Of a stretch of 64,000 nucleotides of DNA, positions 3,382 through 64,000 are shown one piece after another (position 1 is the stretch's first letter; each line of letters starts with the position of its first letter). The position numbers and the translations under genes are program-made. The notes under the pieces are model-generated. The model worked only from the letters and a program-made list of their open reading frames with translations. It did not search any database and was not told where the DNA came from. Origin of the DNA: Methylocystis sp. B8 (GTDB lineage Bacteria > Pseudomonadota > Alphaproteobacteria > Rhizobiales > Beijerinckiaceae); assembly GCF_005771425.1 (NCBI RefSeq), contig NZ_VBTZ01000003.1, positions 186,001-250,000 of the forward strand, in the 5' to 3' direction.

Positions 3382-3484
3382 TGCGTCGCGCCAGACTGCC
3401 ATTTGCATGGTCGACCGGCTGCCGCTTCCGACCATTTGGTTGCCGCGCTTTGCATCACGGCGGCGCAGCGCGAAAAAGGTTAAG

Positions 3485-3800
3485 TGGAGGCTTCTGTTGC
3501 CAGGCGCCTCCGGACCCCGCCTAGAAGTGCAAACCCCTAGGACTTTGATCCCGGTATGGGCGCTGCATTACGCAGCGACGGCCACCGGAGCATAGTTGTC
3601 GTTGGCAACTATAAGGTTTGACCCGATAACGGCGGTATCATGCCGAGCGAAAAATCACCCTTTACGCCCTCGTCGATCCTATTTCGCCCCCGCCGAAGCC
3701 CGCCGCGCCGACGGGCTTTGGTGGAGGCGCCGGGTACCGCCCCCGGGTCCGAATGGTTTATTACGGTGTTCATTTATCGCCATAGCCGCCGCAAGCGACG
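3485..3800 (-). ncRNA. ssrA: Transfer-messenger RNA, two-piece permuted (alphaproteobacterial)
   Basis: The minus strand holds both pieces in permuted order. The acceptor piece comes first and ends in CGCCTCC-A-CCA, with the CCA at 3721-3719. A GC-rich intervening hairpin is followed by the coding piece, starting GGGGGCG at 3691-3685, which pairs with CGCCTCC to make the acceptor stem. GGATCGACGAGGG follows, matching the conserved tmRNA 5' region. The resume codon GCC is at 3606-3604 and the open frame reads ANDNYAPVAVAA, stop TAA at 3570-3568, a typical alphaproteobacterial tag ending in small hydrophobic residues. A hairpin with GGAGGC/GCCTCC arms near 3490-3515 marks the 3' region. Outer ends are approximate. 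Confidence 0.93.
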
Positions 3801-3808
3801 GCGAAGTG

Positions 3809-3836
3809 AATATAGGCGTTTGCGGGATTTTGTGAA
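3809..3836 (-). promoter_or_regulatory. Predicted sigma-70 promoter of ssrA
   Basis: On the minus strand, TTCACA (3836-3831), a 16-base spacer and TATATT (3814-3809) lie just upstream of the acceptor piece. This places the start of the tmRNA precursor at about 3802. The prediction uses the consensus only. Confidence 0.55.
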
Positions 3837-3925
3837 AGGGCGGACCTGTTACGCTGTGGAAAGGCCGCAGCGGCCTAATCTCGCCGCTGCGGCCATTTCT
3901 ACTGCAGCTTCGAAAACCGCTCCGC

Positions 3926-32905: not shown

Positions 32906-34459
32906 ATGAGCGAGAAGAGCCATAGATGCAGGCAAAAAGCCGGCGCCGCGCCAGTTTTGCGCGCGGCGGCGCTTGCAGGGCTCGCGGCGGCGCTCTCGGG
33001 CTGTTTGGTCGGTCCCGATTTTGTTCAACCGCCGGCGCCGGAGGCGCCGCATTTTACTCCGGAAAAAACAGCCTCCCCTGGTCTGGGCCAGCATTTTGCC
33101 GAGGGACGCGACATCCCGGAGGATTGGTGGACGCTCTTTCGGTCAAAGCCCCTCGACACGCTGGTTCGCGAGGCGCTCGATCGCAATCCTTCGCTCGAGG
33201 CGGCAGAGGGGGGGATTCGCATCGCCTATTTCACCGCCGAAGCGCAGAGGGGCGTGCTCCTGCCCCAGGTCGGGATCCTTGCCAACGAAAGCCAGAACCT
33301 GCAGTCGAACAATCGGGCGCTTGGCGCGATCAACCAGTCGCTTTTCAACCAGTTTTTCCCGAGTCCCTACAACATCGTCACTGGTCAAGCGACGCCAAGC
33401 CCGGCGACGGTTAATCCAAACGCGCCTTACGGCCTTTTCTTGAAACAGCTTTCGATCAGCTATGCGCCGGACATTTGGGGGCTGAACCGGCGGAATATCG
33501 AGTCGCTCGAGGCGCAAACCGAGCAGGCGGCGTTCCAGATGGAGGCGGCGCGGCTGGCGCTCACGTCCAATGTCGTCGTCGCGGCCATTCAGGAAGCTTC
33601 GATCCGCGGGCAGATCGAGGCGACAAAAAACATCATTGCGATCCTGAAGGACTCCCTTGAAATCCTGAGGCGACAATATTCCTTCGGCTCCATCGCCAAG
33701 GCGGATGTCGTCGCGCAGGAGGCGGCGCTCGCGCAGGCCGAGCAGGCCCTGCCGCCGCTCGAAAAGCAGCTCGCGCTGCAGCGCGACCTTCTGACCGCTC
33801 TGGCCGGCCGTCTTTCCTTCGAAGAGATCGAGCAGAAATTCAACCTCACGCAACTGAAGCTGCCGGTGACAGTTCCGGTGAGCGTGCCCTCGATGCTTGT
33901 CGAGCAACGTCCCGACATTCGCGCGGCTGAAGCCAATCTGCATGCCGCGACCGCCGCTGTCGGCGTCGCCCGCGCCGCTCGGCTGCCGAACATCACGCTC
34001 TCCGCCAATCTGGGCGTGAGCGCCTTTCATGTCGCGCAGCTCTTCGCCCCGGGAACAGGTTTGTACACGCTCGCCGCGAACGCCGCGCAGCCGCTTTTCG
34101 ATGGCATGACGCTATTGAACAAGGAACGTTCGGCCGTCGCGGCTCTGGAGCAGGCTGATGCGCAATATCGCAGCACGGTCGTTAATGCGTTCCAGAATGT
34201 CACTGACGCGCTACGTTCCTTGCAGTCGGACGCCAAGGCGGTCGAAACCGCGCGTAAGAGCGAAGACGCCGCCAAACGCAGCCTTGATATCGTGCGCATG
34301 CAATTGAAGTATGGACAGGTCTCTCAGATCGCCGTCTTCACTGCGCAGCGACTCTATTTCTCAGCCTCGCTATTGCGCGTGCAGGCTGAAGCGACGCGTC
34401 TCGCCGACACGGCGGCGCTTTTCATGGCGCTTGGCGGCGGCTGGTGGAACCGCGAGTAA
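32906..34459 (+). CDS. RND efflux outer-membrane lipoprotein (NodT/CusC-type)
   Basis: The outer-membrane channel of the same efflux system, 517 residues. The N-terminus carries a lipoprotein signal with the lipobox LSGC at about residue 32, then GPDFVQPPAPEAP typical of NodT-family proteins. Two repeated helical OEP domains follow, marked by LSISYAPDIWGLNRRNIESL and, in the second, LVEQRPDIRAAEANLHAATA. It starts 10 bases after the pump gene. The three genes plus the following kinase-like gene read as one transcript. Confidence 0.94.
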   Translation: MSEKSHRCRQKAGAAPVLRAAALAGLAAALSGCLVGPDFVQPPAPEAPHFTPEKTASPGLGQHFAEGRDIPEDWWTLFRSKPLDTLVREALDRNPSLEAAEGGIRIAYFTAEAQRGVLLPQVGILANESQNLQSNNRALGAINQSLFNQFFPSPYNIVTGQATPSPATVNPNAPYGLFLKQLSISYAPDIWGLNRRNIESLEAQTEQAAFQMEAARLALTSNVVVAAIQEASIRGQIEATKNIIAILKDSLEILRRQYSFGSIAKADVVAQEAALAQAEQALPPLEKQLALQRDLLTALAGRLSFEEIEQKFNLTQLKLPVTVPVSVPSMLVEQRPDIRAAEANLHAATAAVGVARAARLPNITLSANLGVSAFHVAQLFAPGTGLYTLAANAAQPLFDGMTLLNKERSAVAALEQADAQYRSTVVNAFQNVTDALRSLQSDAKAVETARKSEDAAKRSLDIVRMQLKYGQVSQIAVFTAQRLYFSASLLRVQAEATRLADTAALFMALGGGWWNRE

Positions 34460-54324: not shown

Positions 54325-55874
54325 TGGCCAAGGTATACATCCCGCTGGATATGGCCGCCGTCGCGATGGGCGCCGACAAACTGGCCGCCGCCGTCACAAA
54401 AGAGGCCGCGGCCCGCGGCGAAAACATCGAGATCGTCAGAAACGGCTCGCGTGGAATGCTCTGGCTCGAACCCCTGATCGAGGTGGAGACTCCCGCGGGC
54501 CGTGTCGGTTATGGGCCGGCGAAGGTCAAGGACGTCGCGTCGCTGTTCGATGCCGGCTTCCTCGCCGGCGGCGCGCATGCGCTGAACATCGGGATCGTTG
54601 ACGAACATCCCTGGATGAAGAAGCAGAACCGCGTCACCTTCGTGCGCTGCGGCGTGATCGATCCGCTGTCGGTCGCCGAATATGAGGCGCATGACGGGTT
54701 CAAGGGCCTCAAACGCGCCTTCGAGGTCGGGCCCGCGGCCGTCGTGGAGGAAGTCGCCAAGTCGGGCCTGCGCGGCCGCGGCGGCGCGGGCTTTCCGACC
54801 GGCATCAAATGGAAGACGGTGGCGGAGTGCCCGCCCGGCGAGAAATATGTGGTGGTCAACGCCGACGAAGGCGATTCCGGCACTTTCGCCGACCGCATGA
54901 TCATGGAGGGCGATCCGCTCTCGCTGATCGAAGGCATGCTGATTTGTGGATACGCCGTTGGCGCTTCCAAGGGCTATGTCTATCTGCGCTCGGAATATCC
55001 CATCGTCGCCAAGGTCTTCCAGGCGGCGATCGAGACGGCGCAAGAGTCGGGCTGGCTCGGCAAGAACATCAGGGGTTCGGGCTTCGACTTCGACGTCGAA
55101 TTGCGCATTGGGGCGGGGGCCTATGTCTGCGGCGAAGAGACCTCGCTGCTCGAATCTCTCGAAGGCAAGCGCGGCATCGTCCGCGCCAAACCGCCGCTGC
55201 CGGCTCATGTCGGCCTCTTCGGCAAGCCGACGGTCATCAACAATGTGCTCTCCATGGCCACGATACCGATGATCATGGAGAAGGGCGCCAAGCATTACGC
55301 CGATCTCGGCGTCGGCCGCTCGCGCGGCACCATGCCGCTGCAGATCGCCGGCAACGTCAAATATGGCGGTCTCTTCGAGACGGACTTCGGGATTCCGCTT
55401 GGCGTGGTCGTCAACGAGATCGCCGGCGGCACCCGCTCTGGTCGTCCGGTCCGCGCGGTCCAGGTCGGCGGCCCGCTGGGCGCCTATGTTCCGGTGTCGC
55501 TTTTCGACCTTCCGATCGACTACGAGGCGTTCGCCGCCAAGGACAGCCTGATCGGCCATGGCGGCCTCGTGGTTTTCGACGACACCGTCGACATGTCCTG
55601 GATGGCGCGCTTCGGCATGGAGTTCTGCGCCATTGAAAGCTGCGGCAAATGCACGCCCTGCAGGCTCGGCTCGACGCGCGGCGTCGAGACGATCGACAAA
55701 ATTCGCGATGGCCTGAACGTCGACGCGAACATCGAGCTCCTAAAGGATCTCTGCCACACGATGAGGTTTGGCTCGCTCTGTGCATTGGGCGGCTTTGCGC
55801 CCTATCCGGTCGAGAGTGCGCTTCGCCATTTTCCTGAGGACTTCCGCAAGCCGGCCCTTGAAGCCGCTGAGTGA
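54324..55874 (+). CDS. fdsB: NAD-dependent formate dehydrogenase beta subunit
   Basis: 516 residues, NuoF-like. After an N-terminal thioredoxin-like region of ~110 residues come the FMN/NAD motifs GLRGRGGAGFPTGIKWK, NADEGDSGTFADR and GAYVCGEETSLLESLEGK. The C-terminal cluster motif ESCGKCTPCRLGSTRG, with a fourth Cys in GSLCALGG, binds 4Fe-4S. This subunit gives the electrons from formate to NAD. It lies between fdsG and fdsA in the operon. Confidence 0.97.
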   Translation: MAKVYIPLDMAAVAMGADKLAAAVTKEAAARGENIEIVRNGSRGMLWLEPLIEVETPAGRVGYGPAKVKDVASLFDAGFLAGGAHALNIGIVDEHPWMKKQNRVTFVRCGVIDPLSVAEYEAHDGFKGLKRAFEVGPAAVVEEVAKSGLRGRGGAGFPTGIKWKTVAECPPGEKYVVVNADEGDSGTFADRMIMEGDPLSLIEGMLICGYAVGASKGYVYLRSEYPIVAKVFQAAIETAQESGWLGKNIRGSGFDFDVELRIGAGAYVCGEETSLLESLEGKRGIVRAKPPLPAHVGLFGKPTVINNVLSMATIPMIMEKGAKHYADLGVGRSRGTMPLQIAGNVKYGGLFETDFGIPLGVVVNEIAGGTRSGRPVRAVQVGGPLGAYVPVSLFDLPIDYEAFAAKDSLIGHGGLVVFDDTVDMSWMARFGMEFCAIESCGKCTPCRLGSTRGVETIDKIRDGLNVDANIELLKDLCHTMRFGSLCALGGFAPYPVESALRHFPEDFRKPALEAAE

Positions 55875-55884
55875 GGTAGCCGCC

Positions 55885-58764
55885 ATGACGCTCATTAAGG
55901 AAATCGATTACGGCACGCCCGAATCAAAATCCGAGAAACTTGTCACGCTGACCATCGACGGGAAGAGCGTCACCGTGCCCGAGGGCACGTCGATCATGCG
56001 CGCGGCGATGGAGATCGGCACGGAGATCCCCAAGCTCTGCGCGACCGACAGCATCCAAGCCTTCGGCTCTTGCCGACTCTGCGTCATCGAGATCGAGGGC
56101 CGTAACGGCACGCCGGCCTCCTGCACCACGCCGGTCGCGCCGGGCATTTCCGTCAAGACGCAGACGCCGCGACTCGCCGCCATCCGTCGCGGCGTGATGG
56201 AGCTTTATATTTCCGACCATCCGCTCGACTGTCTGACCTGCGCCGCCAATGGCGACTGCGAGCTGCAGGACATGGCCGGCGCGGTCGGTCTGCGGGACGT
56301 CCGCTACGGCTATGACGGCGCCAATCACGTTTTCGCGCGCAATAGTGGCGAAGCGAATTTCAACTGGAAGCCAAAGGACGAGTCGAACCCCTATTTCAGT
56401 TACGATCCGTCCAAGTGCATCGTTTGTAATCGTTGCGTGCGCGCCTGCGAAGAAGTGCAGGGCACCTTCGCGCTGACGATTTCCGGCCGCGGTTTCGACT
56501 CGCGCGTTTCGCCGGGCATGGACGAAGCCTTCATGGAATCGGAATGCGTGTCCTGCGGCGCCTGCGTGCAGGCCTGTCCGACAGCGACGCTGATCGAGAA
56601 GTCGGTCATCTCCGTCGGTCAGCCCGAGCATTCCGAAGTGACGACTTGCGCCTATTGCGGCGTTGGCTGCACCTTCAAAGCCGAAATGCGCGGCGAGGAA
56701 GTCGTCCGCATGATTCCTTGGAAGGACGGCAAGGCGAATCACGGCCACAGCTGCATTAAAGGCCGCTTCGCCTATGGCTACGCCCATCACGGCGAGCGCG
56801 TCCTCAACCCGATGATCCGCGAGTCGATCAATGAGCCGTGGCGTGTTGTCTCGTGGGACGAAGCGATCAGCTTCGCCGCCGACCGGCTGAAAGCCGCGCA
56901 AGAGAAATACGGAAAGAATTCTGTCGGCGTGATCACCTCGTCGCGCTGCACGAATGAGGAGAGTTACCTCGTCCAGAAGCTCGCGCGCCAAGGCTTTAAG
57001 AACAACAACACCGACACCTGCGCGCGCGTCTGCCATTCGCCGACGGGCTATGGCCTAGCGCAGGCGTTTGGCACGTCAGCCGGCACGCAGGATTTCGACT
57101 CGGTTGATGACGCCGACGTTATTCTCGTCATGGGCGCCAATCCGACTGACGCGCATCCGGTGTTCGGCTCGCGTATGAAGAAGCGTTTGCGCGAGGGCGC
57201 TAAGCTGATCGTCATCGATCCGCGCCGCATTGACCTCGTGAAGTCTCCGCATGTCGAGGCGGACTATCACCTGCCGCTCAAGCCCGGCACCAATGTCGCG
57301 ATGATCACGGCGCTGGCGCATGTCATCGTGACCGAAAATCTCGTCAATCTCGATTTCGTGAAGTCGCGTTGCGACTGGGACGAATATCAGGACTGGGCCG
57401 CCTTCGTCGCGCAGCCGCAATATAGCCCGGAATCGCTCGAAAGCGTGCTGGGCGTGCCGGCCGCCGACATTCGCGGGGCCGCGCGTCTCTACGCGACGGG
57501 CGGCAATGGCGCGATCTACTATGGCCTCGGCGTGACGGAGCATTCGCAAGGCTCCACCACCGTTATGGGCATCGCCAATCTCGCCATGGCGACCGGCAAT
57601 CTCGGCCGGCGCGGCGTCGGCGTAAATCCGTTGCGCGGCCAGAACAATGTGCAGGGCTCCTGCGATATGGGCTCGTTCCCGCATGAGCTGCCGGGCTATC
57701 GCCACATCTCTAACGATGCGGCGCGTCAGGCGTTCGAAAAGGATTGGGGCGTTTCGCTCGATCCGGAGCCCGGTCTGCGCATCCCGAACATGTTCGACGC
57801 GGCGATCGAAGGCACGTTCAAAGGACTCTATGTCCAGGGCGAGGACATTCTGCAGTCCGACCCCGATACGAGCCATGTGTCGCGCGCGCTCGCGAATATG
57901 GACATCGTCATCGTGCAGGATCTCTTCCTGGTCGAGACGGCGAATTACGCGCATGTCTTCCTGCCGGGCGCGACATTCCTCGAGAAGGACGGCACCTTCA
58001 CCAATGCCGAGCGTCGCATTCAGCGCGTCACCAAAGTAATGTCGCCGAAGAATGGCTACGCCGATTGGGAAGTGACCCAGCTTCTCGCCAATAAGCTCGG
58101 GCTCAATTGGAACTACGCCAACGCCAGCCAGATCATGGACGAAATCGCGCGCCTGACGCCGTCCTTCGCCGGGGTGTCGTTCAAGCGACTCGAAGAAGTC
58201 GGTTCGCTACAATGGCCGGTCAACGCCGACTCGCCGGACGGCATGCCGATCATGCACATCAACGGCTTCGCGCGCGGCAAGGGCAAATTCGTCATCACCG
58301 AATATGTCCCGACCGATGAGAAAGTGGGGCCGCGTTTCCCGCTGCTGCTCACGACCGGGCGTATCCTGTCGCAGTACAATGTCGGCGCGCAGACAAGGCG
58401 AACCGAGAACACCCAGTGGCATCCTGAGGACGTTCTCGAAATTCATCCGCATGACGCGGAAGATCGCGGCGTGCGTGACGGCGACTGGGTGAAGATCGCG
58501 AGCCGCGCCGGCGAGACGACGCTGCGCGCCAAGATCACGGATCGCGTCGCGCCGGGCGTCGTCTATACGACGTTCCATCATCCGACCACTCAGGCCAATG
58601 TTGTCACGACCGATAATTCCGACTGGGCGACCAATTGTCCGGAATATAAGGTCACGGCCGTTCAGGTCTCGACCACGAATGGGCCGACCGATTGGCAGCA
58701 TCAGTATCGCGAGCTGACGGAGCAGAGCCGTCGCATCGCGAGCGCGATCGACGCGGCGGAATGA
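55885..58764 (+). CDS. fdsA: NAD-dependent formate dehydrogenase alpha (Mo/W) subunit
   Basis: 959 residues, oxidising formate to CO2 at a bis-MGD molybdenum or tungsten centre. The N-terminal 2Fe-2S ferredoxin domain (FGSCRLCVIEIEG) and HPLDCLTCAANGDCELQ lead into two 4Fe-4S motifs, CIVCNRCVRACEEVQ and CVSCGACVQACPTATL. The catalytic part follows with CAYCGVGCTFKAEMR and GHSCIKGRF. The metal-ligand Cys383 is in DTCARVCHSPTGYGLAQA. The ATG at 55885 has GAGGT upstream; the frame runs open into fdsB. Its stop overlaps fdhD. Confidence 0.97.
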   Translation: MTLIKEIDYGTPESKSEKLVTLTIDGKSVTVPEGTSIMRAAMEIGTEIPKLCATDSIQAFGSCRLCVIEIEGRNGTPASCTTPVAPGISVKTQTPRLAAIRRGVMELYISDHPLDCLTCAANGDCELQDMAGAVGLRDVRYGYDGANHVFARNSGEANFNWKPKDESNPYFSYDPSKCIVCNRCVRACEEVQGTFALTISGRGFDSRVSPGMDEAFMESECVSCGACVQACPTATLIEKSVISVGQPEHSEVTTCAYCGVGCTFKAEMRGEEVVRMIPWKDGKANHGHSCIKGRFAYGYAHHGERVLNPMIRESINEPWRVVSWDEAISFAADRLKAAQEKYGKNSVGVITSSRCTNEESYLVQKLARQGFKNNNTDTCARVCHSPTGYGLAQAFGTSAGTQDFDSVDDADVILVMGANPTDAHPVFGSRMKKRLREGAKLIVIDPRRIDLVKSPHVEADYHLPLKPGTNVAMITALAHVIVTENLVNLDFVKSRCDWDEYQDWAAFVAQPQYSPESLESVLGVPAADIRGAARLYATGGNGAIYYGLGVTEHSQGSTTVMGIANLAMATGNLGRRGVGVNPLRGQNNVQGSCDMGSFPHELPGYRHISNDAARQAFEKDWGVSLDPEPGLRIPNMFDAAIEGTFKGLYVQGEDILQSDPDTSHVSRALANMDIVIVQDLFLVETANYAHVFLPGATFLEKDGTFTNAERRIQRVTKVMSPKNGYADWEVTQLLANKLGLNWNYANASQIMDEIARLTPSFAGVSFKRLEEVGSLQWPVNADSPDGMPIMHINGFARGKGKFVITEYVPTDEKVGPRFPLLLTTGRILSQYNVGAQTRRTENTQWHPEDVLEIHPHDAEDRGVRDGDWVKIASRAGETTLRAKITDRVAPGVVYTTFHHPTTQANVVTTDNSDWATNCPEYKVTAVQVSTTNGPTDWQHQYRELTEQSRRIASAIDAAE

Positions 58765-59588
58765 CAGAAACGCCATCGCCGACCCTTCGAGTGGAATGCC
58801 TGGCGCGCCGTCACGATGTGACGGCGCGTTCTTCTCGCGTGATCCCCGAGGAGACGCCGATCGCCTTCACCTATGGCGGCGCCACGCATGCGGTGATGAT
58901 GGCGACGCCGGCGGACTTGGAGGATTTTGCGATCGGCTTCGCGCTGACCGAGGGGCTGATTGATTCGCCGGAGCAGGCCGGCGACGTCGAGATTATCGTC
59001 TCCGACGCCGGCATTGAGCTGCGCGCCTGGCTCAAGGGCGGACGGCAGGAAGCCTATGCCGAACGTCGCCGTTCGATGGCGGGACCGACAGGGTGCGGTC
59101 TCTGCGGCATAGAGAGTCTGGAGGCGGCGACCCGCGTTCTGCCTATGCTTGACAATGCTTTAGAAGTGCGCGCCGACGCTTTGATCGAGGCGATGGAGCG
59201 TCTTCCCTCAGCTCAGAAATACAATCAGGACACTCGCGCCATCCACGCCGCGGCCTTCTGGAACCCGGCTTCCGGCGCGCTGATCGCACGCGAGGACGTT
59301 GGCCGACACAATGCTCTCGACAAGCTCGCCGGCGCCTTGACGCGTCAAGCGATCGCCGCGACGCAGGGCGTCGTGTTGATGACAAGCCGCGTTTCTGTTG
59401 AACTCGTGCAGAAGGCCGCGCGTATGGGCGCGCCAATCATCGCCGCCGTCTCCGCGCCGACCGCGCTCGCCGTACGCAACGCGCAACACTGCGGCATGAC
59501 GCTCGTCGCGGTCATGCGCGGCCGAGACTTCGAAATCTTCACCCATCCGGGACGCATCCTCGAACAGGTTTCCGCACATGTCGCATGA
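58761..59588 (+). CDS. fdhD: Formate dehydrogenase sulfurtransferase FdhD (FdsC)
   Basis: 275 residues. It delivers sulfur to the molybdenum cofactor of the alpha subunit. The catalytic pair lies in GPTGCGLCGIESLE, Cys112 and Cys115. EDFAIGFALTEGLI, NQDTRAIHAAAFW, AREDVGRHNALDKLAGAL and VLMTSRVSVELVQKAARMG are the conserved family blocks. It overlaps fdsA by four bases and fdsD by eleven, so stoichiometry is set by coupled translation. It is placed in the same operon as its target, as in other fds clusters. Confidence 0.95.
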   Translation: MTETPSPTLRVECLARRHDVTARSSRVIPEETPIAFTYGGATHAVMMATPADLEDFAIGFALTEGLIDSPEQAGDVEIIVSDAGIELRAWLKGGRQEAYAERRRSMAGPTGCGLCGIESLEAATRVLPMLDNALEVRADALIEAMERLPSAQKYNQDTRAIHAAAFWNPASGALIAREDVGRHNALDKLAGALTRQAIAATQGVVLMTSRVSVELVQKAARMGAPIIAAVSAPTALAVRNAQHCGMTLVAVMRGRDFEIFTHPGRILEQVSAHVA

Positions 59589-59850
59589 TTCGGTCGATAA
59601 GCTCGTCAAAATGGCTAACCAGATTGGCAAGTTCTTCGTGGCGCAGAAGCACCCCGAAGGCGTTGCGAGCATGACGGATCATTTGAAGAAATTCTGGGAC
59701 CCGCGCATGCGCGACGCGATTATCGCTCATGTCGATCACGGCGGCGTTGGGCTTGATCCGATCGCGATCGAGGCGGTGAAGCGCCTCAGACATCGAGCGG
59801 GCGCCGCCGCTTCGGGATTGCGCCCCGGCGAGGGCGGCGCCGACGGCTGA
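59578..59850 (+). CDS. fdsD: Formate dehydrogenase delta subunit
   Basis: 90 residues, the small FdsD protein: DKLVKMANQIGKFFVAQKHP, followed by VASMTDHLKKFWDPRMRDAI, and a short Gly/Ala tail. In known FdsABG enzymes it is needed for formate dehydrogenase maturation and activity in complex with FdsC. It overlaps fdhD by eleven bases and is the last gene of the operon. It is cytoplasmic and has no cofactor residues of its own. Confidence 0.94.
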   Translation: MSHDSVDKLVKMANQIGKFFVAQKHPEGVASMTDHLKKFWDPRMRDAIIAHVDHGGVGLDPIAIEAVKRLRHRAGAAASGLRPGEGGADG

Positions 59851-59877: not shown

Positions 59878-60393
59878 ATGACCGATCAAATCTGTCCCTG
59901 CCGCGCAATGGACGCGCAACAGCTCTCCTATTCAGTCTGTTGCGCCCCTTATATCGAGCAAGGAGCGCCGCCGCCCACCGCCGAAGCGGTGATGCGCTCG
60001 CGCTACACCGCCTTCGTTGTCGGCGACATCGATTATCTTATCGATACCTTGGCGCCGGAGTCGCGTCACGACTTCGATCGCAAGGCGATCACCCATTGGT
60101 CGCGCAGCTCGCAGTGGCTCGGACTTGAAATTCTCTCAACAGAGCAAGGACAGCCGGGCGATGAAACCGGCTATGTCGAGTTCGTCGCGCATTTCACTAG
60201 CGAAGGCGAACGCTATGCGCATCGCGAGCGATCTTTGTTCCGACACGATGCGCAGGATGGCCGCTGGTATTTTCTTGAAGAGGCTAATCGGAAGAATGCG
60301 CCGATCGTTAAGGGAAAACAGACAGGGCGCAACGATCCTTGTCCTTGCGGCTCCGGCAAAAAATTTAAGAAATGCTGCGCCGCCGCCGCGTGA
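59878..60393 (+). CDS. ychJ: YchJ-family protein with two SEC-C-type zinc motifs
   Basis: 171 residues. The N-terminal segment [20 protein letters not shown] and the C-terminal [15 protein letters not shown] are two SEC-C-like zinc fingers. Between them is the NTF2-like DUF (UPF0225) core marked by [13 protein letters not shown]-like [17 protein letters not shown]. The function is unknown; SEC-C motifs bind zinc and often dock on SecB or ribosomes. It starts 27 bases after fdsD and may be read through from the fds operon. Confidence 0.92.
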
Positions 60394-60449
60394 AGCCACG
60401 ACCGCATTTCCTTCGATGTAGCCCATCAAATCCCCCATCCCCAAGGCCT

Positions 60450-60474
60450 GGAACAAAGCGGCTCCGCCCGCGTT
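60450..60474 (+). promoter_or_regulatory. EcfG-type promoter match upstream of csbD
   Basis: GGAAC (60450-60454), a 16-base spacer and CGTT (60471-60474) fit the alphaproteobacterial EcfG consensus exactly. The expected start site is about 30 bases before the csbD ATG. Confidence 0.7.
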
Positions 60475-60513
60475 TTGTCGGCGTGAAACATTCCTAACCT
60501 CGGAGAATGGGCG

Positions 60514-60714
60514 ATGGATTGGAATCGCGTCGAAGGCAATTGGAAACAGTTCAGGGGCAAGGTGCGGGAGAAGTGGGCTGAGTTGACCGACGACGATCTC
60601 GCTCGCATGGACGGCAAGCGCGAGCAATTCGAAGGCATTCTTCAGGAGCGTTATGGCGAGGGGCGGGATCGCATCCGCGAAGAAGTCAATACTTGGCTCA
60701 AGACCCTCAACTAA
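60514..60714 (+). CDS. csbD: CsbD-family stress protein
   Basis: 66 residues, with the family opening MDWNRVEGNWKQFRGKVREK and a helix-rich remainder (WAELTDDDLARMDGKREQFE; RIREEVNTWLKTL). CsbD proteins are small, hydrophilic and stress-induced in many bacteria; the molecular role is unknown. A perfect EcfG-type promoter match lies upstream and a hairpin with T-run downstream, so it is probably a single-gene transcript under the general stress response. Confidence 0.93.
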   Translation: MDWNRVEGNWKQFRGKVREKWAELTDDDLARMDGKREQFEGILQERYGEGRDRIREEVNTWLKTLN

Positions 60715-60776
60715 GCGCCAACTTTCAAAGCGTCGCGGGCTTAGGCGCGTGATGCTTCTCCGCCGACCTCTCGACT

Positions 60777-60802
60777 GCCCGAACCTCAGGTTCGGGCTTT
60801 TT
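60777..60802 (+). terminator. Rho-independent terminator of csbD
   Basis: A perfect 9-bp stem (60777-60785 with 60789-60797; arms GCCCGAACC and GGTTCGGGC) with a 3-base loop is followed by five T. It ends the csbD transcript before the next predicted promoter. Confidence 0.8.
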
Positions 60803-60894
60803 GCGCACGCTCGGATCTTTGCTTGGGTTTCTCATGCGCCCAAGCGCTTTATCCTTCCCGGAGAAGCAACAAAACGCCGAGCTATCTGGAAGTC

Positions 60895-60919
60895 GGAACA
60901 TTCTCGGAGAGGGAGAGTT
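60895..60919 (+). promoter_or_regulatory. EcfG-type promoter match upstream of the 56-residue ORF
   Basis: GGAAC (60895-60899), 16 bases and AGTT (60916-60919) match the consensus except for the first, less conserved base of the -10. The predicted start site would give a leader of about 30 bases. Confidence 0.55.
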
Positions 60920-60954
60920 GTTTTCCTGTCCGTCTCCGATGAAAGGAGAGCGAA

Positions 60955-61125
60955 ATGAGTTGGAAGCCTAAACTTGGAGTGAACTGGCGACAGTTTGTCG
61001 TTGGAGCAGCCGGCGCGATCGTCCGGGCGTTGTTCATTGGCCCCGAGTTTCTGCGCGAGCGTCGCATTCTTGTTCGTGAACCGGGTCGAGCGGAGATCGA
61101 ATATTGGCTACGCAATCGAAATTGA
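60955..61125 (+). CDS. Small uncharacterised protein of 56 residues, likely stress-induced
   Basis: The ATG at 60955 has AAAGGAGAG seven bases upstream, one of the strongest ribosome sites here. The product opens SWKPKLGVNWRQFVVGAAGA, continues with a mildly hydrophobic helix (AIVRALFIGPEF) and ends charged (RERRILVREPGRAEIEYWLR). No family is recognised. It sits alone between an EcfG-type promoter match and a strong terminator, so it forms a complete one-gene transcription unit. That arrangement is the main support for its being real. Confidence 0.7.
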   Translation: MSWKPKLGVNWRQFVVGAAGAIVRALFIGPEFLRERRILVREPGRAEIEYWLRNRN

Positions 61126-61134
61126 ACCGCTAGC

Positions 61135-61168
61135 GATTGCCTGTTGTTCGACAGGCAATCTTTTTTTT
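61135..61168 (+). terminator. Rho-independent terminator
   Basis: A perfect 10-bp stem (61135-61144 with 61151-61160), 6-base loop and eight T in a row. It lies ten bases after the stop of the 56-residue ORF. Confidence 0.9.
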
Positions 61169-61225
61169 GCCGCGGTTTAGATTTTTTTAGCTACTATCCG
61201 CCCACGCGCTTAATCAGTAGGCGTC

Positions 61226-61438
61226 CTACTCGGCTGGCCGAGATAGTCGCGGCGCAAGCAGGTCCTGCACCTTATCCGGTATGGGTTCGCAGAGACTGTC
61301 CTCATACAGCTGGCGCAGTTCCACCATCAATTGGGCGGTGAATCCGAGCAGCGACAGATGGGACGCTGTGTCCTTTCTCTGCTCGGTTAGCGTTCGCCGT
61401 CGCCGTCCCGGCGTGTCATGTTCAACCTTCTTTTCCAT
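61226..61438 (-). CDS. NepR-like anti-sigma factor candidate
   Basis: 70 residues from the ATG at 61438, with AGGA seven bases upstream. After a charged head (EKKVEHDTPGRRRR) comes LGFTAQLMVELRQLYEDSL followed by CEPIPDKVQDLLAPRL. NepR proteins have the same pattern: helix one with L-x2-LY-x2-V/L, the EPVPD turn, and the LLxxL second helix. NepR holds the EcfG sigma factor until PhyR binds it. Here no phyR, ecfG or kinase is adjacent, so it would be an orphan copy. The start agrees with the predicted EcfG promoter at 61524-61499; a longer reading to 61600 would start upstream of it. Confidence 0.6.
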   Translation of the reverse strand: MEKKVEHDTPGRRRRTLTEQRKDTASHLSLLGFTAQLMVELRQLYEDSLCEPIPDKVQDLLAPRLSRPAE

Positions 61439-61498
61439 TTCGAAGTCCTGGCGGGGGGCGGATGTGGGAGTCGGCAATTCAACAGGAGGTGAAGGTTC

Positions 61499-61524
61499 AA
61501 CAATATGAGCGGCCAAAATGTTCC
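61499..61524 (-). promoter_or_regulatory. EcfG-type promoter match upstream of the NepR-like gene
   Basis: On the minus strand, GGAAC (61524-61520), a 17-base spacer and TGTT (61502-61499). The first -10 base departs from consensus. It is divergent from the ku promoter match 37 bases away. Confidence 0.5.
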
Positions 61525-61560
61525 CGCCACGGCCAAACTTGTTCTTTATTCGGCGGAAGC

Positions 61561-61585
61561 GGAACGAGGCGCTCAAACAGACGTT
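61561..61585 (+). promoter_or_regulatory. EcfG-type promoter match upstream of ku
   Basis: GGAAC (61561-61565), 16 bases and CGTT (61582-61585), a perfect consensus match, 31 bases before the ku ATG. NHEJ genes under the EcfG sigma factor are known from Sinorhizobium. Confidence 0.7.
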
Positions 61586-61616
61586 ATTCCAGACGTCCAC
61601 GTTTTAGGGGGTCGGG

Positions 61617-62423
61617 ATGGCGCCGCGGTCCTTCTGGAAGGGCTATTTGAAGCTTTCGCTGGTGACCTGCCCGGTCGCGATGACGCCGGCCACTACGGAA
61701 GGCGAAAAGGTCCGCTTCCATATCCTTAATCGAAACACGGGCAATCGAGTCGTCAGCCAATATGTCGACTCGGTGAGCGGCGCGCCGATCGGCGAAGACG
61801 ACGCCGTGAAAGGCTATCCGCGCAGCGAAAACGATTACGTGCTGCTTGAAGATGAAGAGCTCGACGCCCTCAGTCTGGAGAGCACGCGGACGATCGACAT
61901 CGACACCTTTGCTCCAGCGTCAAGCATCGACTGGATCTGGTTCGACAAGCCGCATTATCTCATCCCCGATGATCCGATTGGCGTCGAGGCCTTTTCCGTC
62001 ATTCGCGATGCGATGAAGGCGACTGGCACGGTCGGCGTCTCTCGGCTCGTAATGTATCGGCGCGAGCGCGCCGTGATGGTCGAACCGCGCGACAAGGGTC
62101 TGGTCTTATGGACGCTGCGCTTCGCCGATGAAGTGCGTGATCCTAAGGACTATCTTGACAAAATCCGCGCTGAGACGCCGAACGCGAAAGCGCTTGGTCT
62201 GATTTCGAAATTGATCGAGGAACGCAAGAGTCATTGGGACCCCGCGATGGTTCAGGATCCCGTTCAAGCTCAGTTGCTCGACATCATTTCCGGAAAGAAG
62301 AAGGAGCACAGCCCGGCTCGCGCCAAGAAGCAGGCGCCCGCGACGCCGAGCAACGTCGTCAACATCATGGATGCGCTTCGCAAGAGCATCGACGCGGAAA
62401 AGCGTAGCTCGAAGCGCCGTTAG
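61617..62423 (+). CDS. ku: Non-homologous end joining protein Ku
   Basis: 268 residues. Ku homodimers ring DNA ends and recruit LigD. The fold is shown by PRSFWKGYLKLSLVTCPVAM at the start, the conserved KVRFHILNRNTGNRV, VKGYPRSENDYVLLEDEELD, and TIDIDTFAPASSIDWIWFDK. The C-terminal ~45 residues are basic (PARAKKQAPATPSNVVNIMD), as in other bacterial Ku where they contact DNA. The ATG is at 61617. Its stop overlaps the stop of the convergent ligD. Confidence 0.96.
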   Translation: MAPRSFWKGYLKLSLVTCPVAMTPATTEGEKVRFHILNRNTGNRVVSQYVDSVSGAPIGEDDAVKGYPRSENDYVLLEDEELDALSLESTRTIDIDTFAPASSIDWIWFDKPHYLIPDDPIGVEAFSVIRDAMKATGTVGVSRLVMYRRERAVMVEPRDKGLVLWTLRFADEVRDPKDYLDKIRAETPNAKALGLISKLIEERKSHWDPAMVQDPVQAQLLDIISGKKKEHSPARAKKQAPATPSNVVNIMDALRKSIDAEKRSSKRR

Positions 62424-64000
62424 ACTTTCTTTTTGCGCGGCTTAGGCGTTTCGATTGGCGCCGCCGCCTGTCGAAAGTCGGCCCAGGGATCGCTCTTCAG
62501 AGAATCAAGGCGCGCCAGAGTCTTGGCGATCGTGAAATAGGCAGGTCCAATCGCCGGACTGAGTTCGTCCCAGGCGAGCGGAACCGATACGGCCGCGCCG
62601 GGCCGCGCGCGCGTGGAGTAGGGGGCCACCGCCGTCGCGCCGCGCTGATTGCGCAGATAATCGACCAGTATCTTTCCCTGGCGCTTCGACTTCGTGATTG
62701 TTGAGACAAATTTGCCGGGGCTGTCATTCGCCATTGCGTCGGCGATGCTTTTGGTGAACGATTTCACCTGCGGCCATTCCGCTTTGGGCTTAACGGGCGC
62801 CATCACATGGAGGCCTTTTCCGCCCGATGTCTTTACGAAGGCGGCGAGTCCGAGGTCTTGAAGTCGGGCCTTCGTCTCTTCAGCCGCCGCAATGACGGCA
62901 TCCCATTCGACCTGCTCGCCGGGATCGAGATCCATGATGATGACGTCGGGACGCTCCCAGTCCGACGCCGTCGATCCCCAGGGGTGAATTTCCAAAGTAG
63001 CAGACTGAACCAGCGCGATCAGACCGTTGAGATCCTTGATGCTGAGCAAGGGCTCTTCTTCGGACTCCTTCGGATCGTCGATGAGCACGATGTTGGGATC
63101 GATGCCTTTCCAGGCGTGTTTCTGGAAGAATTTCTCTCCGTCGACGCCGTTTGGGCAGCGCAGAAGCGCGAGCGGACGATTGACGATGAACGGCGCGATA
63201 TAGCGCCAGACTTCGGCGTAATAATCTGCGAGCCCCTGCTTGGTTATGCCCTGATCGGGCCAATAAAGCCGATCTGGATGGGTGAGCGTCACGGCGCTTT
63301 TCTCCACGCGCGCCGCCGCCGGCCGCTCGACTGGCGGCGCCTTCTCGCGGACAACGTCGCGCGCTTGCTTGTCTTCACGCAAACCGCGGAAAGAAGCGTG
63401 GCGAAGAACCTGATCCGCCGTCCAACCGCGAAATTCGACCTCAGCCACCAATTCGGGACGCACATAACGGACGTTGCGCGCGGCCTCCGTGCTGAGGCGC
63501 GCGCCAAAAGGGCTCGAGGGCGTGCACAGGGGATCGAGCTTCAAGAAAAGCTCATGCGCCATATCGGTCGTGAAACCCGTTCCGACACGGCCGACATGGC
63601 ATAAAACCCCATGCTGATAAACGCCGAGCACGAGCGCGCCGGTCGCCTTCCGCGACACTGTCGAAGGCGTATAGCCCGCAATCACAAATTCCTGCCGCCC
63701 AAAGCATTTGGCCTTCACCCAACTCTTCACGCGTCCGGAGCGATAAGGCGAGTCGCGCAGCTTCGACACCACGCCTTCAAGACCAAGTCGGCACGCATGC
63801 GACAACACGACCGCGCCGCTATCTTCGAAATGAGCGCTGAGGCGAACTTTATCGCCGTTCTCACCGCCAAGGAGCTTTTCCAGCAACGCCTTGCGTTCAA
63901 GCAAGGCGGCGGCGCGCAGATCGTAGCCGTCGAGATAGAGAAGATCGAAAATCCAGTAAACGAAACGGTCGCTGCGCCCTGCGCTGAGATCGGCTTGAAG
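62420..64000 (-). CDS. ligD: DNA ligase D (C-terminal part; N-terminus outside window)
   Basis: The frame is open through the right edge; 526 codons are here. First comes the end of the ATP-dependent ligase domain: FVYWIFDLLYLDGYD, LEGVVSKLRDSPYRSGRVKS (motifs IV/V) and VGVYQHG-like LVLGVYQHGVLCHVGRVG. The polymerase/primase domain follows (LTHPDRLYWPDQGITKQGLA, IIMDLDPGEQVEW with the metal Asp pair, GGKGLHVMAPVKPK). So the order is ligase then polymerase, the Pseudomonas-type layout. The nucleotidyl Lys and any phosphoesterase domain are upstream of the window. It works with Ku at 61617. Confidence 0.95.
   Translation of the reverse strand, partial: LQADLSAGRSDRFVYWIFDLLYLDGYDLRAAALLERKALLEKLLGGENGDKVRLSAHFEDSGAVVLSHACRLGLEGVVSKLRDSPYRSGRVKSWVKAKCFGRQEFVIAGYTPSTVSRKATGALVLGVYQHGVLCHVGRVGTGFTTDMAHELFLKLDPLCTPSSPFGARLSTEAARNVRYVRPELVAEVEFRGWTADQVLRHASFRGLREDKQARDVVREKAPPVERPAAARVEKSAVTLTHPDRLYWPDQGITKQGLADYYAEVWRYIAPFIVNRPLALLRCPNGVDGEKFFQKHAWKGIDPNIVLIDDPKESEEEPLLSIKDLNGLIALVQSATLEIHPWGSTASDWERPDVIIMDLDPGEQVEWDAVIAAAEETKARLQDLGLAAFVKTSGGKGLHVMAPVKPKAEWPQVKSFTKSIADAMANDSPGKFVSTITKSKRQGKILVDYLRNQRGATAVAPYSTRARPGAAVSVPLAWDELSPAIGPAYFTIAKTLARLDSLKSDPWADFRQAAAPIETPKPRKKKV

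What the first reader, a model, noticed from the sequence alone, without database searches (positions are those of the whole stretch)
60450..61585. Four EcfG-type promoter matches packed into 1.1 kb around csbD, a small ORF, a NepR-like gene and ku
GGAAC-N16-CGTT occurs perfectly before csbD and ku, and with one change in the least conserved -10 base before the 56-residue ORF and (N17, minus strand) the NepR-like gene. A perfect match to nine fixed bases is expected about once per such a window by chance; a cluster upstream of stress-type genes is not. In a partial scan I saw no others. This defines a compact general-stress island that includes DNA repair.
Basis: partly seen in the sequence, partly recalled or inferred. 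Interest (0 to 1): 0.75.

Follow-up and report, generated by a model that had tools for sequence, protein, structure and literature searches.

The report
Stress-sigma-controlled DNA-end-joining gene cluster
In a methane-eating Methylocystis-like bacterium, four neighbouring genes (a small stress protein, an unknown 56-residue protein, a NepR-like regulator and the DNA-break-binding protein Ku) each carry an evolutionarily conserved start signal of the general-stress type; the individual gene-to-regulator links are mostly known from relatives, while the compact arrangement and the unusual crowd of NepR-like regulators look new.

Summary
The window has five GGAAC-N16/17-NGTT sites, four of them in 60450-61585. 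None of 300 shuffles gave four sites in such a stretch. In 11 Methylocystis-type loci, site and gene come and go together: ku 11, nepR-like 10, csbD 9, ORF56 8. For csbD, ORF56 and ku the motif columns are invariant while most upstream columns are not. A ku-proximal site occurs in 59 of 80 similar ku loci, about 0.35 expected, but in only 13 of 46 ku genes of a broader class sample.

The island continues past the window: ligD, a second ku and two small genes form an apparent operon behind a fifth conserved site.

EcfG control of csbD, ku and a nepR is already measured in Sphingopyxis (PMC7083833), so the logic is known. What looks new is the arrangement, and that this NepR-like gene is one of about 12-13 in the genome, 9 of 13 behind EcfG-type sites, against 0-2 in 24 genomes of other families. 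I read them as stress-induced dampers of the PhyR-NepR-EcfG switch. No transcription or binding was tested.

The parts
60450..60474 (+). EcfG-type promoter of csbD (GGAAC-N16-CGTT); -10 ends 39 nt before the ATG
   Evidence: Exact match; present in the same 9 of 11 Methylocystis-type loci that have csbD; 8 of 8 motif columns invariant in 10 rows vs 5 of 50 upstream columns, though 12 of 16 spacer columns are invariant too
60514..60714 (+). csbD, 66 aa
   Evidence: PF05532 E 1.8e-17, above cut-off; 92-97% identical in 9 loci
60777..60797 (+). terminator-like hairpin + T run behind csbD
   Evidence: one of 5 terminator-like hits in 60380-62500, shuffle mean 2.8
60895..60919 (+). EcfG-type promoter of the 56-aa ORF, -10 AGTT; ends 35 nt before the ATG
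   Evidence: AGTT site in the same 8 of 11 loci that have the ORF; 8 of 8 motif columns invariant in 9 rows, spacer 10 of 16, upstream 6 of 50
60955..61125 (+). ORF56, small protein of unknown family
   Evidence: No Pfam match at E 1; orthologues in 8 of 11 loci; dN 0.26-0.40 vs dS 0.63-1.00 in 8 comparisons, so it looks like a real conserved protein
61135..61160 (+). terminator-like hairpin + T run behind ORF56
61226..61438 (-). nepR-like gene, 70 aa if it starts at ATG 61438 (inferred: the longer open frame starts upstream of the promoter, and this M is kept in all 11 aligned rows; 7 relatives also have an earlier in-frame ATG)
   Evidence: PF18557 E 4.2e-5, 23.5 bits, cut-off 25.7; own-genome profile E 5e-18, but this row was in the profile; dN/dS about 0.29-0.65 in 10 comparisons
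61499..61524 (-). EcfG-type promoter of the nepR-like gene (N17, TGTT)
   Evidence: site in 10 of 11 loci, the same 10 that have the gene (N16 or N17; -10 TGTT or CGTT); aligns poorly: 5 of 8 motif columns, spacer 2 of 17, upstream 11 of 50
61561..61585 (+). EcfG-type promoter of ku (N16, CGTT); -10 ends 31 nt before the ATG
   Evidence: 11 of 11 Methylocystis-type loci and 48 of 69 other ku loci; 8 of 8 motif columns invariant in 12 rows vs 4 of 16 spacer and 9 of 50 upstream columns
61617..62423 (+). ku (ku1), 268 aa
   Evidence: PF02735 E 4.1e-44
62420..64000 (-). ligD 3' part, convergent with ku1; the whole gene is contig C18:248420-250978 (852 aa: phosphoesterase, ligase, primase-polymerase), preceded outside the window by ku2, two small genes and an EcfG-type site at C18:252779-252754
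   Evidence: the fifth site stands before the first small gene in 9 of 9 Methylocystis-type loci where that gene is whole and the upstream is held

Best explanation
The four sites are real promoters for the alphaproteobacterial general-stress sigma factor (EcfG or its paralogue), each driving its own transcription unit: csbD, ORF56, the nepR-like gene and, divergently from nepR-like, ku1. A fifth such site outside the window drives a small-gene/membrane-gene/ku2/ligD operon facing ku1, so both Ku proteins and LigD fall under the stress response. On stress, phosphorylated PhyR pulls NepR off EcfG (established for the family, recalled), EcfG starts these promoters, and cells gain end-joining repair plus CsbD-type proteins. 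The co-induced NepR-like protein most likely feeds back on the switch, by binding PhyR (as one Methylobacterium paralogue does) or EcfG, and so limits the response. Shown here: sites, gene content, conservation, co-occurrence, presence of the switch genes. Inferred: transcription, the operon, EcfG dependence in this organism, and the NepR-like feedback role (this last step about 0.5).
For: Exact positions. Clustering beyond chance. Site and gene co-occur in 11 Methylocystis-type loci: ku 11/11, nepR-like 10/10, csbD 9/9, ORF56 8/8 of the loci that have the gene. Motif columns invariant for csbD, ORF56 and ku. ku site in 59 of 80 ku loci vs 0.0044 expected per locus. Fifth site before the first small gene of the ku2-ligD group in 9 of 9 testable loci. 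No sigma-70-like promoter found in 60380-62500 by a simple consensus scan, and two terminator-like hairpins separate the units. Two EcfG-like sigma factors, three PhyR, many NepR-like genes in the genome. csbD, ku and nepR2 transcripts fall to 0.00, 0.16 and 0.00 in the double ecfG mutant of Sphingopyxis by RT-qPCR (PMC7083833 passages); a ku gene is in the EcfG list of Sphingomonas melonis (PMC6599016 passages). A stress-induced NepR paralogue of M. extorquens binds PhyR and makes the strain more stress-sensitive when overexpressed (PMC4814048 passages).
Against: No transcription data for this organism. The motif is not enriched genome-wide. Two of the four -10 boxes deviate (AGTT, TGTT); changing CGTT to TGTT lowered transcription in vitro (PMC7083833). 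The alignment of the nepR promoter region did not line up all motif columns (5 of 8 invariant, with 11 of 50 upstream columns invariant), the spacer being N16 or N17. The csbD and ORF56 spacers are themselves fairly conserved, so only ku gives a sharp footprint. A few loci have extra matches without an evident gene (e.g. L038 at -998, and minus-strand matches across the csbD site in L032, L033, L039). In the broader class sample only 13 of 46 ku genes have the site. The NepR-like protein is below Pfam's cut-off, and M. extorquens homologues differ in what they bind.
Confidence: 0.85

Rival explanations
1. The sites are real ECF-type promoters but belong to another ECF sigma factor, or to the second EcfG paralogue only, so the genes answer a narrower signal than general stress.
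For: Two EcfG-like proteins (48% identical) and two more distant hits (34% and 26%) in the genome; GGAAC -35 boxes are shared by several ECF groups (recalled).
Against: The -10 CGTT and N16/17 spacing match the EcfG consensus (GGAAC-N16-CGTT in PMC7083833); the same gene types are EcfG-dependent in sphingomonads.
Confidence: 0.1
2. Chance: short degenerate motifs that happen to lie before four genes.
For: Genome-wide counts do not exceed reversed-pattern controls.
Against: 0 of 300 shuffles with four sites; conservation with gene co-occurrence; ku site in 59 of 80 loci.
Confidence: 0.02
3. The promoters are real, but the NepR-like protein is a normal anti-sigma factor for one EcfG, or a diverged protein with no role in the switch, rather than a PhyR-binding damper.
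For: S. meliloti's two NepR proteins both bind the sigma factor and the PhyRs; one of three M. extorquens homologues was found to bind neither (PMC4814048 passages). The Pfam score is under the cut-off.
Against: The core LRQLYEDSLCEPIPDK segment resembles canonical NepR of the same genome and solved NepR 3t0y_B (E 0.16, weak); purifying selection.
Confidence: 0.4

Closest known systems
EcfG regulon of Sphingopyxis granuli TFA (PMC7083833; passages seen)
   Same: csbD, ku-ligD and a nepR are given as direct EcfG targets; promoter GGAAC-N16-CGTT; other -10 boxes also occur and work less well
   Different: These genes have far-apart locus tags there (SGRAN_3063, 4136/4135, 1162), not one cluster; nepR2 is in an operon with ecfG1
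EcfG regulon of Sphingomonas melonis Fr1 (PMC6599016; passages seen)
   Same: ku (#1102) is EcfG-dependent with a GGAAC site
   Different: Its listed -10 is AATT; the passages seen name no nepR or csbD neighbour
NepR paralogues of Methylobacterium extorquens AM1 (PMC4814048; passages seen)
   Same: Extra nepR-like genes, two of three with putative EcfG-type promoters; one stress-induced, PhyR-binding negative regulator
   Different: Three homologues there; about 12-13 here, one next to ku
Stress-inducible NHEJ of Sinorhizobium meliloti (Dupuy et al. 2019, NAR; not held; title seen in a reference list; content recalled)
   Same: Ku-based end joining induced by the general stress sigma factor RpoE2 (recalled)
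   Different: Not checked here

Membership tests
EcfG-type (general stress) promoter | -35 GGAAC, spacer N16-17, -10 CGTT or variant | tested here: met
   Two exact, two with one change in the first -10 base
EcfG-type (general stress) promoter | Placed shortly before a gene, in the right orientation, and conserved with it | tested here: met
   -10 ends 31-60 nt before the starts (nepR-like start inferred); co-occurrence in 11 loci
EcfG-type (general stress) promoter | Genome encodes EcfG, NepR, PhyR | tested here: met
EcfG-type (general stress) promoter | Transcription start behind the -10, lost without EcfG | not testable with these tools
   needs RNA data
NepR anti-sigma family | Match to the NepR profile PF18557 | tested here: inconclusive
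   E 4.2e-5 but 23.5 bits under the 25.7 cut-off, positions 6-29 of 35; 25.3 bits in the genome search
NepR anti-sigma family | Small protein with the E/Q-P-x-P core segment | tested here: met
   70 aa by the inferred start, LRQLYEDSLCEPIPDK, aligned with canonical NepR of the same genome; helices not modelled
NepR anti-sigma family | Binds EcfG and/or PhyR | not testable with these tools
   none
Bacterial NHEJ (Ku + LigD) | Ku domain; LigD with ligase and primase-polymerase | tested here: met
   PF02735; PF13298, PF01068, PF04679, PF21686
CsbD-like | PF05532 above cut-off | tested here: met
   63.4 bits vs 40

The most novel reading that the evidence does not exclude
Methylocystis has turned the NepR anti-sigma factor into a family of up to a dozen stress-induced dampers, most with their own EcfG promoter, against only two EcfG and three PhyR in this genome. 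The copy in this window is wired back-to-back with ku, so end joining and part of the shut-off of the stress response are launched together: a distributed negative-feedback design that I have not seen described for the alphaproteobacterial general stress response.
Probability: 0.35. Interest if true: 0.6.

Novelty: new member of a known kind. Interest (0 to 1): 0.4.

Why it matters
If true, error-prone DNA end joining (both Ku proteins and LigD) of a methanotroph is under the general stress sigma factor, and ku of this orthologous group is a recurrent EcfG target in Alphaproteobacteria (59 of 80 loci). That would bear on stress-induced mutagenesis, desiccation survival and uptake of foreign DNA. 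The crowd of EcfG-promoted NepR paralogues gives a natural system for testing how anti-sigma duplication tunes a stress response.

Tried and rejected
Whole-genome motif counting as evidence was rejected: the exact and relaxed patterns are no commoner than their reversed controls. A uniquely dense island was rejected: contig C4 has nine relaxed sites in 8.65 kb around a phyR. 'ku universally EcfG-controlled' was rejected: 13 of 46 distinct ku genes in the class sample, the window's own two included (a first pass gave 14 of 47 with some genes counted twice and two missed; one of the 47 matches, G483's partial ku, was not fetched; the estimated start of L160 is unreliable). NepR next to ku outside Methylocystis: 0 of 69 other ku loci with a profile built from this genome's NepRs at E 0.5; divergent NepRs could be missed and some loci are short. 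A solved-structure match for the NepR-like protein was weak (E 0.16). The Rfam scan of the window at gathering thresholds found only tmRNA and tRNAs, nothing near the cluster. No structure was predicted and no viral, plasmid or phage collection was searched.

Full report
Where it is. The window is contig C18:186001-250000 of a 3.41 Mb genome. Its ku is 87-93% identical to those of Methylocystis species and related MAGs in the 11 nearest loci, so I treat it as Methylocystis-like.

The observation. All four sites are real and at the stated places. The exact pattern occurs twice in the window, both times here, against a shuffle mean of 1.06. With the first -10 base left free there are five in the window, four of them in 60450-61585. 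Of 300 dinucleotide shuffles 4 had three or more and none had four in 1136 bp; of 400 letter-permuted motifs, 2 did; at the genome-wide density 0.0045 such clusters are expected per genome. Against this, the motif is not over-represented in the genome: 65 exact hits vs 64 for the reversed pattern, 166 vs 196 relaxed. A single match is therefore worth little by itself, and contig C4 has another dense region, nine relaxed sites in 8.65 kb around a phyR.

Conservation. Of the 80 ku loci kept (325 relatives were found, the best 80 returned), 11 are Methylocystis-type (L031-L041). Site and gene (tblastn E 1e-3) are present together and absent together: ku 11 of 11; nepR-like 10 (both missing in L041); csbD 9 (both missing in L038 and L041); ORF56 8 (both missing in L031, L038 and L041). 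L038 has one further match at -998 without csbD, and three loci have a minus-strand match across the csbD site. In alignments including the window, the 8 tested motif columns are all invariant for csbD (10 rows), ORF56 (9) and ku (12), against 5, 6 and 9 of 50 upstream columns. The spacer is variable for ku (4 of 16 invariant) but fairly conserved for csbD (12 of 16) and ORF56 (10 of 16). The nepR-like site did not align cleanly (5 of 8 columns, upstream 11 of 50), the spacer being N16 or N17. The AGTT of ORF56 is unchanged in its rows, but that row set was chosen by AGTT, which allowed any first base, shows the same eight. Changing CGTT to TGTT lowered transcription in vitro in Sphingopyxis (PMC7083833, passages), so the deviating boxes may set lower strength (inference).

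ku beyond the genus. A plus-strand site starting 40-80 nt before the ku start occurs in 59 of 80 loci, 48 of 69 outside the Methylocystis type, against 0.0044 expected per locus from the same contigs. These 80 are the loci most similar to this ku, so the sample is biased. In a wider draw, 35 of 241 class genomes have Ku, with 47 matches. Of 46 distinct ku genes examined (this genome's two included), 13 have the site at -110 to -30: 4 of 5 close relatives by score (this ku1 included) and 9 of 41 others. Only perfect GGAAC and GTT were counted; the S. melonis ku has an AATT -10 (PMC6599016), so this count misses variants.

Genes. csbD and Ku are Pfam matches above cut-off. ORF56 has no Pfam match at E 1, but dN is well below dS in 8 of 8 comparisons. 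The nepR-like frame matches PF18557 at E 4.2e-5, just below the curated cut-off. Its promoter lies inside the longer frame, so I place the start at ATG 61438 (70 aa); this M is kept in all 11 aligned rows, though 7 relatives also have an earlier in-frame ATG a few bases after the expected start point. dN/dS is about 0.29-0.65 in 10 comparisons. Two strong terminator-like hairpins follow csbD and ORF56 (of five terminator-like hits, shuffle mean 2.8); no sigma-70-like promoter was found in 60380-62500.

Past the window. ligD (C18:248420-250978, minus; phosphoesterase, ligase and polymerase domains) is preceded on its strand by a second ku (250985-251842), a holin-family-like membrane protein (251885-252382; PF07332, 30.6 bits, cut-off 28.4) and a small protein (to ATG 252712), with GGAAC-N17-AGTT at 252779-252754. 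ku2 is in 11 of 11 Methylocystis-type loci. The site stands before the small gene in 9 of 9 loci where that gene is whole and its upstream is held; there it has spacer N16 and mostly AGTT. L036 ends too early; in L038 only pieces of the small and holin-like genes match, and its site lies before the CsbD-like gene instead. That CsbD-like gene (253044-253430; 30.2 bits, cut-off 40) has GGAAC-N17-GGTT at 253515-253490; a site also precedes it in 5 of 5 relatives whose upstream is held (L031, L032, L033, L038, L041). The operon is inferred from spacing alone.

The NepR crowd. PF18557 at E 0.001 finds 7 matches in this genome, the most among 297 genomes of the order; the next have 6 and 5 (same family), one other genome has 4 and the rest 0-3; in this genome and some others not all first-look candidates were scored. 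A profile from this genome's own sequences finds 13 at E 0.01 (14 at E 1; 12 at E 0.001). The same profile at E 0.001 finds 10-12 in 9 of 37 same-genus genomes (this one included), 0-9 in the other 28, and 0-2 in 24 genomes of other families. So the expansion is uneven within the genus; the profile favours its own genome, and the counts may hold a few false members. GGAAC-N16/17-NGTT lies within 350 nt upstream in 9 of 13 here and 18 of 30 loci from three other genomes (29 distinct: L219 and L225 gave the same hit), against 0.017 expected per gene. These three genomes were chosen by me among those with 8-12 copies. With two EcfG-like proteins and three PhyR over the cut-off, the NepR-like genes far outnumber their usual partners. 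In M. extorquens one such EcfG-promoted homologue is stress-induced, binds PhyR, is not seen to bind EcfG and raises stress sensitivity when overexpressed; the authors propose negative feedback (PMC4814048, passages). I carry that model over as inference, about 0.5.

Known or new. EcfG-dependence of csbD, ku and nepR2 is measured by RT-qPCR in Sphingopyxis granuli (PMC7083833, passages); ku in S. melonis (PMC6599016, passages); stress-inducible NHEJ in S. meliloti (Dupuy 2019, not held, recalled; title seen). So the regulatory links are known kinds. I found no paper on NepR in Methylocystis or on this cluster in one open-licence library: listings; the two papers that hold all three words have 'nepr' only in their reference lists. 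Verdict: a real, conserved, larger-than-described general-stress/NHEJ island, a new member of a known kind, with an unusual NepR expansion as the more original lead.

Noticed in passing
G000 whole genome (C1, C3, C8, C18, C21, C23); window copy 61226-61438: About 12-13 NepR-like genes in one genome, 9 of 13 with an EcfG-type site upstream; 10-12 copies in 9 of 37 same-genus genomes.
   Followed up: partly
L127 (G000:C4:7000-19000): Nine relaxed EcfG-type sites in 8.65 kb around a phyR that resembles the phyR near the end of contig C21; a second site-dense region, with a frame that looks like a transposase (that label is recalled, not searched).
   Followed up: partly
L136 (G000:C18:250985-253515): Second ku, a holin-family-like membrane protein, a small protein and a CsbD-like gene beyond the window, with two more EcfG-type sites.
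   Followed up: yes
L034, L035, L037, L039, L040, about 6.3 kb after the ku start, minus strand: A further GGAAC-N17-NGTT site, kept in five Methylocystis-type loci, between the small gene and the CsbD-like gene; the gene it serves was not identified.
   Followed up: no
window 55768-59850: Apparent formate dehydrogenase genes (alpha subunit, FdhD-like, small delta-like), followed by a ychJ/SEC-C gene; apart from YchJ and SEC-C the names are recalled from the look of the frames.
   Followed up: no
window 3483-3841 minus: alpha-tmRNA, with the permuted tmRNA family also matching.
   Followed up: no
window 33852-33876 minus: The only other relaxed EcfG-type site of the window (AGTT, N16); gene context not examined.
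   Followed up: no
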